A stretch of 64,000 nucleotides of DNA from an uncultured Flavobacteriaceae bacterium (GTDB taxonomy: Bacteria; Bacteroidota; Bacteroidia; Flavobacteriales; Flavobacteriaceae). The DNA lies in NCBI GenBank assembly GCA_947494715.1, contig CANLWG010000015.1, positions 113,323 to 177,322 on the forward strand, read 5' to 3'. Below, piece after piece: positions 2,574-64,000 of this stretch. The notes below the pieces were generated by a model, which saw only the letters and a program-made list of their open reading frames with translations, was not told the origin of the DNA and did not search any database. Position numbers and translations under genes: made by a program. How positions within the stretch are numbered: position 1 is the stretch's first letter; each line of letters begins with the position of its first letter.

Positions 2574-3878
2574 TCACTTCTCTATTTGATTCCTATTATA
2601 CTCCTGTATTTCATTATGGATACTGGTCGTTTCTATTTCATTTTCCAAACGGACCTTTAGGGGTATGGCAATTGATCCTCCGGGGGGTAACAAGTAGCTC
2701 TGGTTAAAAGAGCTATCTACATTACCATCATGATCCAGGGCAGAAGATCCAAATTCAATTCCTATCCCATCCCAATTGCGGGTTAACAATGACACGCCGT
2801 TCAAATCGGTAAATTCATTGCTCCCTTGACCTCCGGAGCACAACCAGGACTGATAATAAGGAAAGTTCGGGGTTTCCATCACAATCCCGGTCCCATCGGG
2901 ATAGACCACAAGACTTTGAACCATCTTCTTAGCCGTAATCGAATCCTCGAGCAATTGCAACCCCTTTCGTATCACCCCGACTTCCGTGCGTATCTTTTTG
3001 TTCTTCGAGGGAGGCCAAATGTTATGATCTTCCGGAATCGGCCCGGCGGATCGGTCTTCGATTATCTTGGAAGGTATGGCTATTTCACAGCCTTCTACGG
3101 GGTATAATGTAATATGATAGCCGAAGCTTGGCACTAGTTCATGTTCGCTGGTATTGATGATTTCATCCTCCAGAAAAATTTCCGGAATGCCATTTTGGAA
3201 TGAAATCTTTCGGATAACCTGAAACAAAGGTTTCCCTCGCTTATACCATGGTTCTGTCCCAGATTCCTCATAATCCCTTACCGTCATATATCCTTTGATC
3301 ATCATACCTGTTTCTACTATCTTTGCGACCACGCTGTCCATCGGGATGTTGGAGGTTTCTCCGTGAAGCGGATGGAATTCCCCAGTATTCGGGTCGGTGT
3401 AGTGCATGCCCCAATTTTGGAGTCCGTAAAGTTCTATTCCGCCCATCAAGGTTTTAAGAAACTGCACCCCTCGGGTTGGCACTCCATTGATAGCAACTGA
3501 AGAATCTTGAAGATTAAGGGCATTGACATCCGGCAAATCTACAGGAGCGCTCCAAAAAAGAGGTCGCTCTTTATAGAATACCTGCCCTACCGAGAGGCCT
3601 TTAGTTGGGAGCAATTCAACGTTCAGATCCTTTCCTGAAACGTATATACGGTTCATTCCATCTGCATCGGTCTTTAAATGCTTTACTACTATTGCATATG
3701 TCCCAAGACTGTCTGCCCATCCTTCTTCGGAAAGGTTCATAAAATCAATTAACCGCTCTTTCCGGGCATCATTAGCGTTGTCCCTGGCACAACCATAGGT
3801 CATACAGACCGCAAGGGCCAAGACGATAATAAGTCTTGCAATACCCATTGTTTTTTGGAGGTTTGTGTACTTGGACAT
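2574..3878 (-). CDS. Exported DUF4432/aldose-1-epimerase-like lipoprotein
   Basis: Start likely MSKYTNLQK (3878) or MGIARLIIVLALAVCMTYGC (3848), not 4046. Lipoprotein-type signal; galactose-mutarotase-like region (GGIELYGLQNWGMHY, PSFGYHITLYP). Confidence 0.65.
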   Translation of the reverse strand: MSKYTNLQKTMGIARLIIVLALAVCMTYGCARDNANDARKERLIDFMNLSEEGWADSLGTYAIVVKHLKTDADGMNRIYVSGKDLNVELLPTKGLSVGQVFYKERPLFWSAPVDLPDVNALNLQDSSVAINGVPTRGVQFLKTLMGGIELYGLQNWGMHYTDPNTGEFHPLHGETSNIPMDSVVAKIVETGMMIKGYMTVRDYEESGTEPWYKRGKPLFQVIRKISFQNGIPEIFLEDEIINTSEHELVPSFGYHITLYPVEGCEIAIPSKIIEDRSAGPIPEDHNIWPPSKNKKIRTEVGVIRKGLQLLEDSITAKKMVQSLVVYPDGTGIVMETPNFPYYQSWLCSGGQGSNEFTDLNGVSLLTRNWDGIGIEFGSSALDHDGNVDSSFNQSYLLPPGGSIAIPLKVRLENEIETTSIHNEIQEYNRNQIEK

Positions 3879-59265: not shown

Positions 59266-60213
59266 AAGCGAAACACGGTAATTGACCACCTCGGAAAAAA
59301 TAGAGCTGGAATTCTAAAAAGGGAAATATTGGGACTTAACAAGATGAAAAAATCAATAATTGTACTTTTTTCCTTATAAGTAATCAAGAATATAGGGCCA
59401 ATTGTTTCGCTAAAGACTCTTACTTAAATGGCTTTTAAGAATTGTTAGTTGTTAGTTTGCAAAGAAGAGGAGTTTTGGGTTGAACTTTTATATACAAATG
59501 CACTCAGACCCCTTTTTAAATGAAATCCATCGTATATAAGGTTTGAAGTTGGACTAATGACCATAGGGAAAATGTATATGATTCTTTTAGTTTTTAAGTT
59601 ATAGATTGAGCCTTGAAACTAGAGGGCCTGCCGATGAGAAAATTGTTAAATAAATTAATATTTCGGCAATCCCTCCTTTAGTTAACTTTTTATACACTAT
59701 CGTAGCTTCCGAGCAAGTCTTTCCTACTCATAGAAACTTCAAAACAGGAAGCAAAATTTGAGCATGCAGAAGACCTCAATAGAAGCAAAACAACTTATTG
59801 ATTCCACAAAAGAAGAAGTGCCGCAAAGGGGCCATATAATGGAAATCTTTTTTTCATCGTATATGCCATTTTAAAAGAGTCCTATTCCCAGTCTCTTTTA
59901 ATAGTTTCGTTAATTCCCCTTTTATGGAACCTGATTCAGAAGGTATTTTTGCTGTTACGCTCAATTCATTCCCTTAACTCTCCATACCTGAAAAGAAGCT
60001 TCTTTCAAAGTTATGGGCACTTGCCAAAAAAAATATCTTGATTCTTGTGGAGAAATTTTTGTAAACATGGTATCCAGTTTTTTGTTAACTATTAGATACA
60101 TTTTAGGGTAAAGTCCGCTCGGTCAAAAATTCGACTTTCCGCTTTGTTCCACTTCCGTAGATTCCGTACTCTTCCCCATCTGTTTTGGCAATATCTCCAG
60201 TAACGCCACCATC

Positions 60214-60352
60214 ACCCTTTTATTCGATAGCAAAAAAACAACACCCATTCTTGGTGACGGCATAAAGCCAGTCCCGCTGTTCACGGGGCTTTTTTATACG
60301 TCTTTCCCAAGCCTGGATATTGTAGGTGGTACGGCATCAAAAAAGGGTAACG
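60214..60352. repeat. Imperfect long-hairpin repeat, copy 1
   Basis: ACCCTTTTATTCGATAGC...GGCATCAAAAAAGGGTAACG with terminal inverted similarity; shares blocks with copy 2 (AACAACAYCCATTCTTGG, GACGGCATAAA, TTTATACGTCTT, CAAGCYTGGATATTGTA). Confidence 0.7.
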
Positions 60353-60460
60353 GCGGACGGCCTTTAGTTTTGTTCTATAGATGAAATCTATTATGGTTAT
60401 GATGTTGAAAAGAGGGGGTCCGGGGGAGACTCATAACCCACAACTTTGTTGATAAACTGA

Positions 60461-60640
60461 AACAGGATAGGGAGAACCATAGCGACGGCGAGACATTGGG
60501 TCTTTATAGAATACTGGTCCCTATCCTTTTTCAACGATTTAAGGATATTTATATGGAATAGATTGAAAAAGGACAGGGTGAACTTCAGCGACGGCCAGGC
60601 TAATGGCCTTTATAGTGTATCAGTCCCTGTCCTTGATAAC
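60461..60640 (+). ncRNA. Candidate IS110 bridge RNA (two tandem structured loops)
   Basis: Two related units (60464-60527, 60570-60633) share GAAC...AGCGACGGC...CTTTATAG...GTCCCT.TCCTT, each closed by a 9-10 bp stem and holding a covarying inner 4-bp stem; directly upstream of an IS110 transposase. Confidence 0.65.
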
Positions 60641-60723
60641 CAGGTTGTCAGAACCATATAGGATTTTAGCCTTAGCTAGTAAAGGTCTTAGTTTAAGCAA
60701 CCTAATTAAACCCAAGTAAAAAT

Positions 60724-61713
60724 ATGGAAATTAAGGGGGTCATCGGAATCGATGTAAGTAAGCTGACATTGGATTGTTGTATCCATAAAAGTCAGGATTT
60801 CAGGGTATTCAAGAACGATTCTGGAGGTATCAAGAAGCTGATGGATTGGTCCTTGAAGAAGAGTAAAACGGATAAGGACAACCTGCTCTTTGTACTGGAG
60901 CATACGGGCCTTTATTCGGACCATTTGGTTCGATTGCTGGATGGACAGGGTTGCCTTTTGAACATTGTTTCCGGTCTCGAGGTAAAACGCTCGTTGGGCA
61001 TTACAAGGGGAAAGGATGACAGGACGGATGCGAAACGGCTGGCACTTTACGGATATCGTACAAGGGAGGAAGTCCTTCCGAACAAGATGCCCAGTTCTAC
61101 ATTGGCGAGGCTAAAACGGCTGATGTCCATGCGCAGGAAGTTGGTCGGCCAACGAGCCGGGCACATGGCTACGCTAAGGGAGCAAAAAAGGGTGCTGGAA
61201 GAAGATCCTTTGTTGTTCTGGGTACAGGAAGATGTGATCGACCTATTGACCTGGAGGATCAAAGACCTTGAGCGGGAGATGGATAAACTGATACAAGGGG
61301 ACATGGAACTCAAACGGATCTTGGCATTGTTGACCGGGATCAAGGGTATCGGTAAGGTAACGGCCCGTTTCATGATCGTCCATACCGTAGGGTTCACTTC
61401 TTTTGCTACCTGGCGAAAATTTGCATCATACTGTGGCATAGCCCCCTTTCCACATACTTCCGGCACGAGTGTGAGGGGAAGGACAAAGGTCAGTAGATTG
61501 GCAAACAGGGAAGGAAAGGCCCTGTTGCACCAATGTTCCCTATCTGCCATAAAGTGCAACCCGGAAATGAAGGCCTATTATGAACGTAGACTTACGATAG
61601 GAAAGAGCAAGATGAGCACGCTTAACATCATCAGGAACAAATTGGTGGCCAGGGCGTTTGCAGTAGTATTCAGGGGCACTCCCTATGTCAATACGATGGG
61701 ATATGCCGGTTGA
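60724..61713 (+). mobile_element. IS110-family transposase (DEDD recombinase)
   Basis: IGIDVSKLTLDCCIHK, LEHTGLYSDHLVRLL, DRTDAKRLALYG, LLTGIKGIGKVTARFMI, FASYCGIAPFPHTSGTSVRGRTKVSRLANREGKALLHQ. Confidence 0.93.
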
Positions 61714-61732
61714 AGCATCTTGCTTCGTTCGG

Positions 61733-62524
61733 TCACCGTCCGAATTTCAATATTCGGACAGCTCCCTGTACGACCAGGACAAAAACGATGGCACCTATTA
61801 TGAGGTCGGGCCTGTTGGAGTCCAGCCAGTTCACCAATAGTCCTGCAGTGATTACCCCCAGATTGATGATTACATCGTTGGAGGTAAAAATCATACTGGC
61901 CTTCATATGTGCCTCATCGCTCTTGGATTTTTGAAGGAGATAGAGACAGATTCCGTTCGCCATAAGCGCGAAAATGGACACGACGACCATTGTCGAAAAA
62001 TCGGGAAGCCTTTCAGCCCCGAAAAAACGCCTCAATACTTCGGCAAAGCCAATTATGGCCAGGATAATCTGGAAATACCCGGCCAGGCGCGCTATCCTTT
62101 TCTTTCTTACTAGCGTTCCCCCAACGGCGAAAAGGCTGATTCCGTAAACGAAGGAGTCCGCCAACATATCCAAGCTGTCCGCTACAAGGCCCATCGACCC
62201 TGAGAGGATGCCTGTGGCCATCTCGATAAGAAAGAAGGCGAAATTGATTCCAAGGACCGTCCAGAGCAGTTTTTTTTGCCCTGAGCTTTCCTCAAAGGCC
62301 ATATCATTGGCCTCCTCGGTCGATATTATTTTCGCGCCCAATCCCAGTTCCAGTATCGAATCCTCAATCCGTTCGTACTCACCGTCATGGTAGACAAATA
62401 ATCTCCTGTTGGGAATATCGAAATCCAAGTGGGCGATGGACCGAATCCCATCCAGCTTCATCCGTATCAGGTTCTCCTCTGAAGGACAGTCCATCTTGGC
62501 AATGTTGAAAAGGGTTTTCTGCAT
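61733..62524 (-). CDS. Cation diffusion facilitator-like transporter with N-terminal metal-binding-like domain
   Basis: MDCPSEENLIRMKL; GILSGSMGLVADSLDMLADSFVYGISLFAVG; multiple TM helices. Confidence 0.82.
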   Translation of the reverse strand: MQKTLFNIAKMDCPSEENLIRMKLDGIRSIAHLDFDIPNRRLFVYHDGEYERIEDSILELGLGAKIISTEEANDMAFEESSGQKKLLWTVLGINFAFFLIEMATGILSGSMGLVADSLDMLADSFVYGISLFAVGGTLVRKKRIARLAGYFQIILAIIGFAEVLRRFFGAERLPDFSTMVVVSIFALMANGICLYLLQKSKSDEAHMKASMIFTSNDVIINLGVITAGLLVNWLDSNRPDLIIGAIVFVLVVQGAVRILKFGR

Positions 62525-62672
62525 AAATTATTGTTACGACAGTGTTGTAAAATTACCGATTCGGGAAGAGGGTTCAAAACGGTTCTCCTTAACGCATTTT
62601 GTGCCATTGCTTTGAAGCGGGCCCTCTTCATCAATAGGTGTTCGACTTGCCCGGACGTCCATATAGCACAGT

Positions 62673-62805
62673 ACCTTTTTTTGGATAGCGAAAAAACAAC
62701 ATCCATTCTTGGACGACGGCATAAATCGTTGCGCTACGCTCCACTATTTATACGTCTTACCAAGCTTGGATATTGTACGATCATTTGCATCAAAAAAAGG
62801 TAATG
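62673..62805. repeat. Imperfect long-hairpin repeat, copy 2
   Basis: ACCTTTTTTTGGATAGC...GCATCAAAAAAAGGTAATG; same block order as copy 1 with a different apical loop. Confidence 0.7.
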
Positions 62806-62815
62806 TGAGGGCTCT

Positions 62816-62925
62816 ATGGGAAGTAAGTCGAAAACAGATAAAGATGAAATCGAATCCACTACAAAAAATCGCAACGGCACAAAAGAATCAAAAAAAGGAA
62901 AATGCTCAGGATATAATAAGTATGT
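62816..62925 (+). pseudogene. Decayed upstream copy of small MGSKSKT ORF
   Basis: ATGGGAAGTAAGTCGAAAACAGATAAAGATGAAATCG...GGAAAATGCTCAGGATATAATAAGTA resembles 63000-63113, but its start and end lie in different frames. Confidence 0.5.
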
Positions 62926-62999
62926 CGATTTTTTCTTATTGGGCGGATTCGATAGAAAAAATTTATGGGGAAAGATTTGGATTTACCATAGGATACACT

Positions 63000-63134
63000 A
63001 TGGGAAGTAAATCAAAAACAAAAAAGATGAAATCGTACGGAATCGACAAAAAGGAAGCAGAACAAAAGTTAAAAAATCAAAAAAGGGAAAACGCTCCGGA
63101 TATAATAAGTAAATCCCTGTCAGCCGTAGGCTGA
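63000..63134 (+). CDS. Small protein (MGSKSKTKKMKSYGIDKKEAEQKLKNQKRENAPDIISKSLSAVG)
   Basis: 44-aa lysine-rich ORF; more intact copy of the duplicated unit. Confidence 0.45.
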   Translation: MGSKSKTKKMKSYGIDKKEAEQKLKNQKRENAPDIISKSLSAVG

Positions 63135-63197
63135 GATTTTAAAAGCTGTCCGAGGGTCGGGCGGTCATATAGTTAATAATTCTAAATTTTTTCAATT

Positions 63198-63551
63198 ATG
63201 AGTAATCTAAGGAACAAAGTACAATTGATCGGCAACGTGGGGAACGAGCCCGAAATGACCGTTTTGGAAAGCGGTAAAAAACTGATCCGTTTTTCATTGG
63301 CAACCAACGAGAACTACAAGAACGCCAAGGGCGAGAAAGTACAGAGCACGGACTGGCACAACATGGTCGCTTGGAACAAGACCGCCGAGATCATCGAGAA
63401 GTATGCGGGTAAAGGAAAAGAGATTGCCGTGGAAGGCAAATTGACCTCTAGAAGTTATGAGACCAAGGAAGGTGAAAAGCGATACATCACGGAAGTGATT
63501 ATTAGCGAGGTCTTGTTATTGGGTGCCAAGAACGAAAACAAGGCGGCCTAA
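63198..63551 (+). CDS. ssb: Short single-stranded DNA-binding protein
   Basis: LRNKVQLIGNVGNEPEMTVLESGKKLIRFSLATNENYKNAKGEKVQSTDWHNMVAWNKTAEIIEKYAGKGKEIAVEGKLTSRSYE; no acidic C-terminal tip. Confidence 0.93.
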   Translation: MSNLRNKVQLIGNVGNEPEMTVLESGKKLIRFSLATNENYKNAKGEKVQSTDWHNMVAWNKTAEIIEKYAGKGKEIAVEGKLTSRSYETKEGEKRYITEVIISEVLLLGAKNENKAA

Positions 63552-63639
63552 TATGTTGACCATTTAAAAAGTAAAGAGGGCATCTCTCGCAAAAGTTCTG
63601 CCCTCTTTTTCATTATCAAACTCTTTAAAAAGTATAACA

Positions 63640-63954
63640 ATGAAGAACAAAGTTAACGAAATTCAAGTAAGCTATAGGGAAAGGATCCCGGCCACCTTTT
63701 GGCATAAGATCAATTCATCCCAAGATGCCGCCGATCTTCTTTACGGGCATTGGGACAAAAGTACGATCCAAGTACATGAATCCTTTAAGGTGGTGCTATT
63801 GAACAACAACAATAAAGTGAAGGGTATCTACCAACTCTCAAAGGGCGGGATCACGGCTACTGTTATCGATATGCGTATCCTTTTTGCAGTGGTCCTAAAA
63901 TCATTATCGGTCGCCATTATACTGACCCATTATGTAGAGTGTAAGATTATGTAG
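63640..63954 (+). pseudogene. Truncated RadC/JAB-domain protein
   Basis: RadC-like ESFKVVLLNNNNKVKGIYQLSKGGITATVIDMRILFAVVLKSLSVAIILTH, then YVECKIM* where HNHPSG is expected. Confidence 0.75.
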
Positions 63955-64000
63955 AGTAAATCCCCTAAACCCTTGTCATTAATAAGAAGAGTTTAAAATT

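What the first reader, a model, noticed from the sequence alone, without database searches (positions are those of the whole stretch)
60461..60640. Two-unit structured RNA upstream of IS110 transposase with covarying stems: candidate bridge RNA
Seen: unit A AGGATAGGGA...TCCCTATCCT and unit B AGGACAGGG...CCCTGTCCT share a scaffold (GAAC-AGCGACGGC-CTTTATAG-GTCCCT). The outer stem covaries (T-A to C-G) and so does the inner stem (AGAC/GTCT to AGGC/GCCT). Only three short stretches differ (CAT vs TTC; around ATTGG vs TAATG; GAATACTG vs TGTATCAG). Known: IS110-group elements encode a bridge RNA with target- and donor-binding loops in the noncoding left end. Inference: units A and B are the two loops, and the divergent stretches include the guides.
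Basis: partly seen in the sequence, partly recalled or inferred. Interest (0 to 1): 0.78.

Follow-up and report, generated by a model that had tools for sequence, protein, structure and literature searches.

The report
IS110 transposon with two target loops
A jumping DNA element in a flavobacterium appears to encode a guide RNA that tells its enzyme where to insert; unlike its relatives found here and the published examples I could read, this RNA has two "address" hairpins for the same kind of target site, and the element also carries a metal-efflux gene.

Summary
In detail: units A (60464-60527) and B (60570-60633) are real, structured and covarying. The region encodes an IS110-group bridge RNA, but A and B are not its target loop and donor loop. 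B is the target-binding loop (TBL). The donor-binding loop (DBL) lies outside the reported coordinates, at 60643-60702. A is a second TBL-like unit.

A guide rule tested on 25 single-TBL relatives (about 10 s.d. above permutation for each guide) also explains the window insertion, through B. An empty site in a same-genus genome fixes the element at 60362-62996.

Seven elements form one clade (support 100/99). All seven have two TBLs, a right end 0.5-2.5 kb beyond the transposase, an internal copy of the target region, and insertion upstream of ssb-radC. Three carry metal-handling genes. A TBL covariance model finds one TBL in 40 other elements and two only in these seven.

A keeps the left guide (GCGACGGC) and a compensating stem while the neighbouring spacer decays, so it is probably functional. 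A and B encode different first bases of the right target, a position that varies in natural sites (T 33, A 10, G 8, C 3). A's role is inferred: I favour a second target specificity. The window's own A has a mutated core guide.

The parts
60362..62996 (+). Whole IS110-group element, left end CTTTAG to right end GGATAC (2635 bp)
   Evidence: Empty site in same-genus genome G002 (L080) reads GGGTAACGGCGGACGGC|ACTATGGGAAG; 148/150 and 140/149 flank identity
60230..60361 (+). Left flank: hairpin P of the target and left target GGTAACGGCGGACGGC (outside the element)
60362..60407 (+). Left end with TAGTTTTG (possible -7 box of a circle-junction promoter) and small hairpin ATAGAT-GAA-ATCTAT
   Evidence: Sequence; junction motif in 16 of 25 elements; promoter is inference
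60408..60437 (+). G-rich motif AAAAGAGGGGGTCCGGGGGAGACTCATAAC, shared by most related left ends
   Evidence: function unknown
60464..60527 (+). Unit A: second TBL-like loop
   Evidence: Covariance model E 3e-8; compensatory stem changes
60481..60489 (+). Left target guide of A (AGCGACGGC)
   Evidence: Conserved 0.958 against 0.40 for the A-B spacer
60503..60514 (+). Right target guide side of A (TTTATAGAATAC); core guide AU instead of GU in this copy
60570..60633 (+). Unit B: target-binding loop
   Evidence: Equivalent to the only TBL of relatives; guides fit the insertion site
60584..60595 (+). Left target guide of B (TTCAGCGACGGC)
   Evidence: Guide rule; window fit
60609..60620 (+). Right target guide of B (TTTATAGTGTAT)
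   Evidence: Pairs with ACTATGGG at 62997: 5 Watson-Crick and 3 G-U
60643..60702 (+). Donor-binding loop (GGTTG...CAACC; left donor guide around TAGGAT, right donor guide TAAAGGTCTTAG)
   Evidence: Left donor guide covaries with right end in 35 of 35 elements
60724..61713 (+). IS110 recombinase, 329 aa
   Evidence: PF01548 and PF02371
61733..62524 (-). Cargo: cation diffusion facilitator family transporter, 263 aa
   Evidence: PF01545, TIGR01297 below its cut-off
62692..62960 (+). Internal copy of the target region: hairpin P' and altered site GGTAATGTGAGGGC|TCTATGGGAAG
   Evidence: Present in all seven dual-TBL elements
62982..62996 (+). Right end TTTACCATAGGATAC
   Evidence: Same motif as relatives' right ends; empty site
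62997..63140 (+). Right flank: right target ACTATGGG and short conserved region upstream of ssb (63198-63551)

Best explanation
The region encodes the bridge RNA of an IS110-group transposon at 60362-62996. It consists of one target-binding loop (B), one donor-binding loop (60643-60702) and, in this clade only, a second target-binding loop (A) upstream. When the element excises as a circle, the joined ends would form the donor site and a promoter for the RNA. The DBL would pair with that junction, and B with the site GCGACGGC|ACTATGGG upstream of ssb-radC, and the recombinase would join the two. A shares the left guide but encodes a different first base of the right target, so one transcript could address two alleles of the same target. 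Shown here: anatomy, single origin of the two-TBL layout, guide rule in relatives, window insertion site, cargo, internal target copy. Inferred: transcription, recombination, and the role of A. I put B plus DBL as a bridge RNA at about 0.95, and A as a working second target loop at about 0.5.
For: Guides match flanks in 25 non-redundant relatives: left 142/225 against 59.8 +/- 8.2 permuted, right 110/175 against 49.7 +/- 6.1. Donor guide and right end covary 35 of 35. Exact empty site. B pairs with the window's flanks. Two TBLs in exactly seven elements, one in 40 others, one origin at 100/99. A keeps its left guide and a compensating stem. First right-target base differs between A and B in 7 of 7, and is T 33, A 10, G 8, C 3 in 54 empty sites.
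Against: No RNA or activity data. A is less conserved than B (0.685 against 0.87). Its core-adjacent bases depart from the GUAU of 30 of 33 relatives, and the window copy's core guide is AU. The agreement of each loop with a particular site base (5 of 7) is not beyond chance for seven related elements (hand calculation, about 0.14 and 0.29). All seven known insertions are explained about equally by A or B apart from one base.
Confidence: 0.6

Rival explanations
1. A is a target loop that docks on the target without completing strand exchange, acting as a decoy, regulator or guard against repeated insertion.
For: The two bases after A's core guide differ from the family GUAU in all seven elements, being UU or AA, or with the core changed in the window; these positions correspond to the handshake guides that affect strand exchange in IS621 (PMC11208158).
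Against: Three B loops also vary at the second of these bases. No direct evidence of occupancy or immunity.
Confidence: 0.2
2. A is a decaying duplicate of B without function.
For: A is less conserved than B and the window copy has a core-guide change. L043 shows another tandem duplication in the same RNA, so duplications happen.
Against: A is kept in all seven elements, down to 73% recombinase identity, with compensatory stem changes at five positions and a nearly invariant 8-nt left guide beside a decayed spacer.
Confidence: 0.2
3. A and B are the target loop and the donor loop of one bridge RNA.
For: Two similar stem-loops upstream of an IS110 recombinase, as a two-loop RNA would have.
Against: A true DBL lies at 60643-60702 and covaries with the right end. 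Forty relatives have only B plus this DBL. A and B share the same left guide, and neither matches the element's right end or left end.
Confidence: 0.02
4. The structure is unrelated to transposition, for example a regulatory leader or attenuator of the recombinase gene.
For: It lies directly upstream of the gene.
Against: Guide sequences track insertion-site flanks in 25 elements far above permutation.
Confidence: 0.02

Closest known systems
IS621 and its bridge RNA (IS110 group; PMC11208160, PMC11208158)
   Same: DEDD/Tnp recombinase, RNA in the long left end, order TBL then DBL, split left and right guides, target and donor pairing, hairpin-type targets, possible promoter across the joined ends.
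   Different: Here there are two TBLs, a displaced right end with cargo, an internal copy of the target, a core that looks like AC (only the C is invariant) rather than CT, and Bacteroidetes-type promoter motifs.
Single-TBL IS110 elements of Bacteroidota found here (for example L044-L061, own-genome C2 and C19)
   Same: Recombinase 44-65% identical, same left end, TBL (equivalent to B), DBL and right end.
   Different: One TBL, right end 27-98 nt after the stop codon, no cargo seen between, other targets (L060 and L061 lie in group II introns).
IS1111 group and seekRNA (PMC11187229)
   Same: RNA-guided DEDD recombinase family that favours folded repeat targets such as attC and REP.
   Different: IS1111 carries the RNA downstream of the gene and has subterminal inverted repeats; here the RNA is upstream.

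Membership tests
IS110-group element | Recombinase with DEDD_Tnp_IS110 and Transposase_20 domains | tested here: met
   PF01548 E 5e-19, PF02371 E 8e-21
IS110-group element | Long non-coding left end upstream of the gene that holds the structured RNA | tested here: met
   362 nt from left end to ATG
IS110-group element | Short right end after the gene | tested here: not met
   Right end lies 1.28 kb after the stop codon, with a cargo gene and target copy between; the terminal 45 nt keep the family motif
IS110-group element | Insertion without target duplication at a specific site | tested here: met
   Empty site in G002; no duplication apart from one shared C
Bridge RNA | Target loop whose left and right guides match the insertion-site flanks | tested here: met
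   Family rule; unit B in the window, left guide only 6 contiguous matches
Bridge RNA | Donor loop whose guides match the element ends | tested here: met
   Left donor guide, 35 of 35; right donor guide seen by eye only
Bridge RNA | Exactly one target loop and one donor loop | tested here: not met
   Two target-type loops in seven elements
Bridge RNA | Promoter rebuilt across the joined ends | tested here: inconclusive
   TTTG-N20-TAGTTTTG in the window, motif in 16 of 25; no shuffled control was run
Bridge RNA | RNA is transcribed, binds the recombinase and directs recombination | not testable with these tools
   Needs RNA sequencing, binding and recombination assays
IS1111 group | RNA downstream of the gene; subterminal inverted repeats | tested here: not met
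   TBL and DBL lie upstream; inverted repeats were not separately searched

The most novel reading that the evidence does not exclude
A clade of cargo-carrying bridge-RNA transposons with a naturally two-target bridge RNA: B drives insertion at one allele of the target, and A either opens other alleles or docks without strand exchange. The element also brings its own altered copy of the interrupted hairpin, so that the ssb-radC operon keeps its upstream region and the copy escapes self-targeting.
Probability: 0.35. Interest if true: 0.78.

Novelty: new variant of a known kind. Interest (0 to 1): 0.62.

Why it matters
Published bridge RNAs have one target loop and one donor loop. A natural RNA with two target loops and one donor loop would be a ready model for multiplexed or degenerate targeting with bridge recombinases, and would show target specificity evolving by loop duplication. 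In the IS621 structure the target and donor loops of one complex appear to come from different RNA molecules (PMC11208158), so a second target loop on the transcript is mechanically plausible. The cargo (cation efflux here, mercury transport genes in a relative) suggests that IS110 recombinases move passenger genes in nature. The guide rule and the 54 empty sites make the question directly testable.

Tried and rejected
A and B as target and donor loops: rejected. The conserved stretch 60400-60455 as insertion target or captured IS3 end: rejected as target, because it lies inside the left ends of most homologues; why IS3-type ends share it is unexplained. A right end close to the recombinase stop: none in any dual element. 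The internal target copy as the site read by A: first-base agreement is 5 of 7, which is not beyond chance, and the left guides fit it no better than the external site. A-A distances against A-B distances to date the duplication: uninformative, both 0.317. Known Rfam family for the bridge RNA or target hairpin: no match in 59500-64000 at E up to 1, none in empty sites L081 and L086. Integron attC identity of the hairpin: considered from its shape, not tested. More relatives: none in viral contigs, only 35-38% identity in plasmids.

Full report
What is there. Units A (60464-60527) and B (60570-60633) are real, and the region is more structured than 199 of 200 shuffles. They lie in the 362-nt left end of an IS110-group element whose recombinase (60724-61713) has both family domains. 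The window belongs to a 5.97-Mb genome; the named relatives closest to its recombinase are Flavobacteriaceae.

How the family works. I collected homologues from the same genome, from samples of up to 400 genomes of the family and order, and from GTDB species genomes. Single-TBL elements have this layout: left end CTTTAG, one TBL, a second and different loop, recombinase, right end [C/T]ATAG[G/A]ATAC 27-98 nt after the stop codon. The twelve nucleotides after GTGAAC match the DNA left of the left end, and the 3' side of the TBL is complementary to the DNA right of the right end. In 25 non-redundant elements the left guide matches at 142/225 positions (permuted mean 59.8, s.d. 8.2, maximum 97 in 5000 permutations) and the right guide at 110/175 (49.7, 6.1, maximum 72). 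The second loop reads TAGGAT when the right end is TAGGATAC, and TAGAAT when it is TAGAATAC, in 35 of 35 elements. These two results identify target loop, donor loop and ends from the data. The layout agrees with that described for IS621 (PMC11208160). TBL stems covary at 11 of 17 pairs.

The window element. A same-genus genome has the unoccupied site GGGTAACGGCGGACGGC|ACTATGGGAAG, with 148/150 and 140/149 identity to the window's flanks. The element is therefore 60362-62996. B's right guide pairs with ACTATGGG over 8 nt (5 Watson-Crick, 3 G-U), and its left guide matches the 6 nt next to the crossover. The donor loop is at 60643-60702, outside the reported coordinates.

Unit A. A covariance model trained on 15 single-TBL elements and two B units finds two plus-strand TBLs upstream of the recombinase in the window, L039, L040, L041, L042, L043 and L059. 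It finds one in 40 other loci (some near-identical) and none in three more distant ones. Weak opposite-strand hits are the mirror of the same hairpins. The seven share one origin on the recombinase tree (100/99). They also share three other features: no right end near the recombinase, an internal copy of the target region just before the displaced right end, and insertion upstream of ssb-radC (ssb and radC families at an empty site). In six of them A is less conserved than B (0.685 against 0.87), but A's 8-nt left guide is 0.958 conserved and the A-B spacer only 0.40. A's stem shows compensatory types at five positions. I read this as retained function.

What A may do. A and B share the left guide and differ at the first right-target base in every element: A has T in six and A in one; B has A in four and G in three. 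In 54 distinct unoccupied sites this base is T 33, A 10, G 8, C 3. Together the two loops would cover the commonest alleles. This is inference: B agrees with the actual flank in 5 of 7 and A with the internal copy in 5 of 7, but with these base frequencies I calculate by hand about 0.14 and 0.29 for such agreement by chance, and the elements are related. The bases after A's core guide also differ from the GUAU of 30 of 33 single-TBL elements. They correspond in position to the handshake guides of IS621 (PMC11208158), so A may bind without completing exchange. In the window's copy the core guide itself is AU instead of GU.

Cargo and internal target. The window carries a cation diffusion facilitator-type gene. 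L040 carries a mercuric transport protein MerTP, an ArsR-type regulator and a GDCCVxC protein. L059 carries a CDF-type transporter and similar open frames for the other three. The internal hairpin copies are more alike between elements (0.839) than to their own external target (0.782), so they travel with the element. Their left target differs from the external one in all seven. A plausible reading is that the copy restores the region upstream of ssb and avoids self-targeting; this was not tested. Regions similar to part of the target occur in 96 of 400 family genomes.

Promoter. Joining right and left ends gives TTTG-N20-TAGTTTTG in the window and a matching motif in 16 of 25 junctions. TAnnTTTG is the described Bacteroidetes promoter consensus (PMC10309648); the upstream TTTG box and its spacing are from my own knowledge. 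No RNA data were available.

Known or new. The kind is known: bridge RNA-guided IS110 recombination. The variant, with two target loops on one RNA, natural cargo and an internal target copy, was not found in the papers searched or read. Those are open-licence papers only; subscription papers and bioRxiv are not held, so an earlier description cannot be excluded.

Noticed in passing
window 60408-60437; L033 and L035 (G089, G083); left ends of L044-L048, L060, L061, L063: A 30-nt G-rich motif (AAAAGAGGGGGTCYGGGGGAGACTCATAAC) is nearly invariant in these IS110 left ends and also occurs, on the opposite strand to the transposase, at the end of an IS3-like element. In 150 genomes searched for it with up to one mismatch it was found only in G000 and G089.
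   Followed up: partly
L043, about 3240-3480: Salegentibacter element with a further tandem duplication of about 97 bp covering part of TBL B and part of the DBL.
   Followed up: no
L060 3192-3265; L061 1372-1445: Single-TBL relatives are inserted inside group II introns (Rfam RF00029), with left guide GTACGGTTC matching the intron sequence.
   Followed up: partly
window 60230-60361 and 62692-62810; L080-L105: Conserved imperfect hairpin with inverted flanking arms upstream of ssb-radC, similar in part in 96 of 400 family genomes, with no Rfam match. Its role is unknown.
   Followed up: partly
L040 4570-5751; L059 4502-6480: Metal-resistance genes (MerTP, ArsR-type regulator, GDCCVxC protein in L040; CDF-type transporter in L059) carried inside IS110-group elements.
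   Followed up: yes
G000:C2:260055-261040 (L024): An own-genome relative of the recombinase is split into two frames, so probably broken.
   Followed up: no
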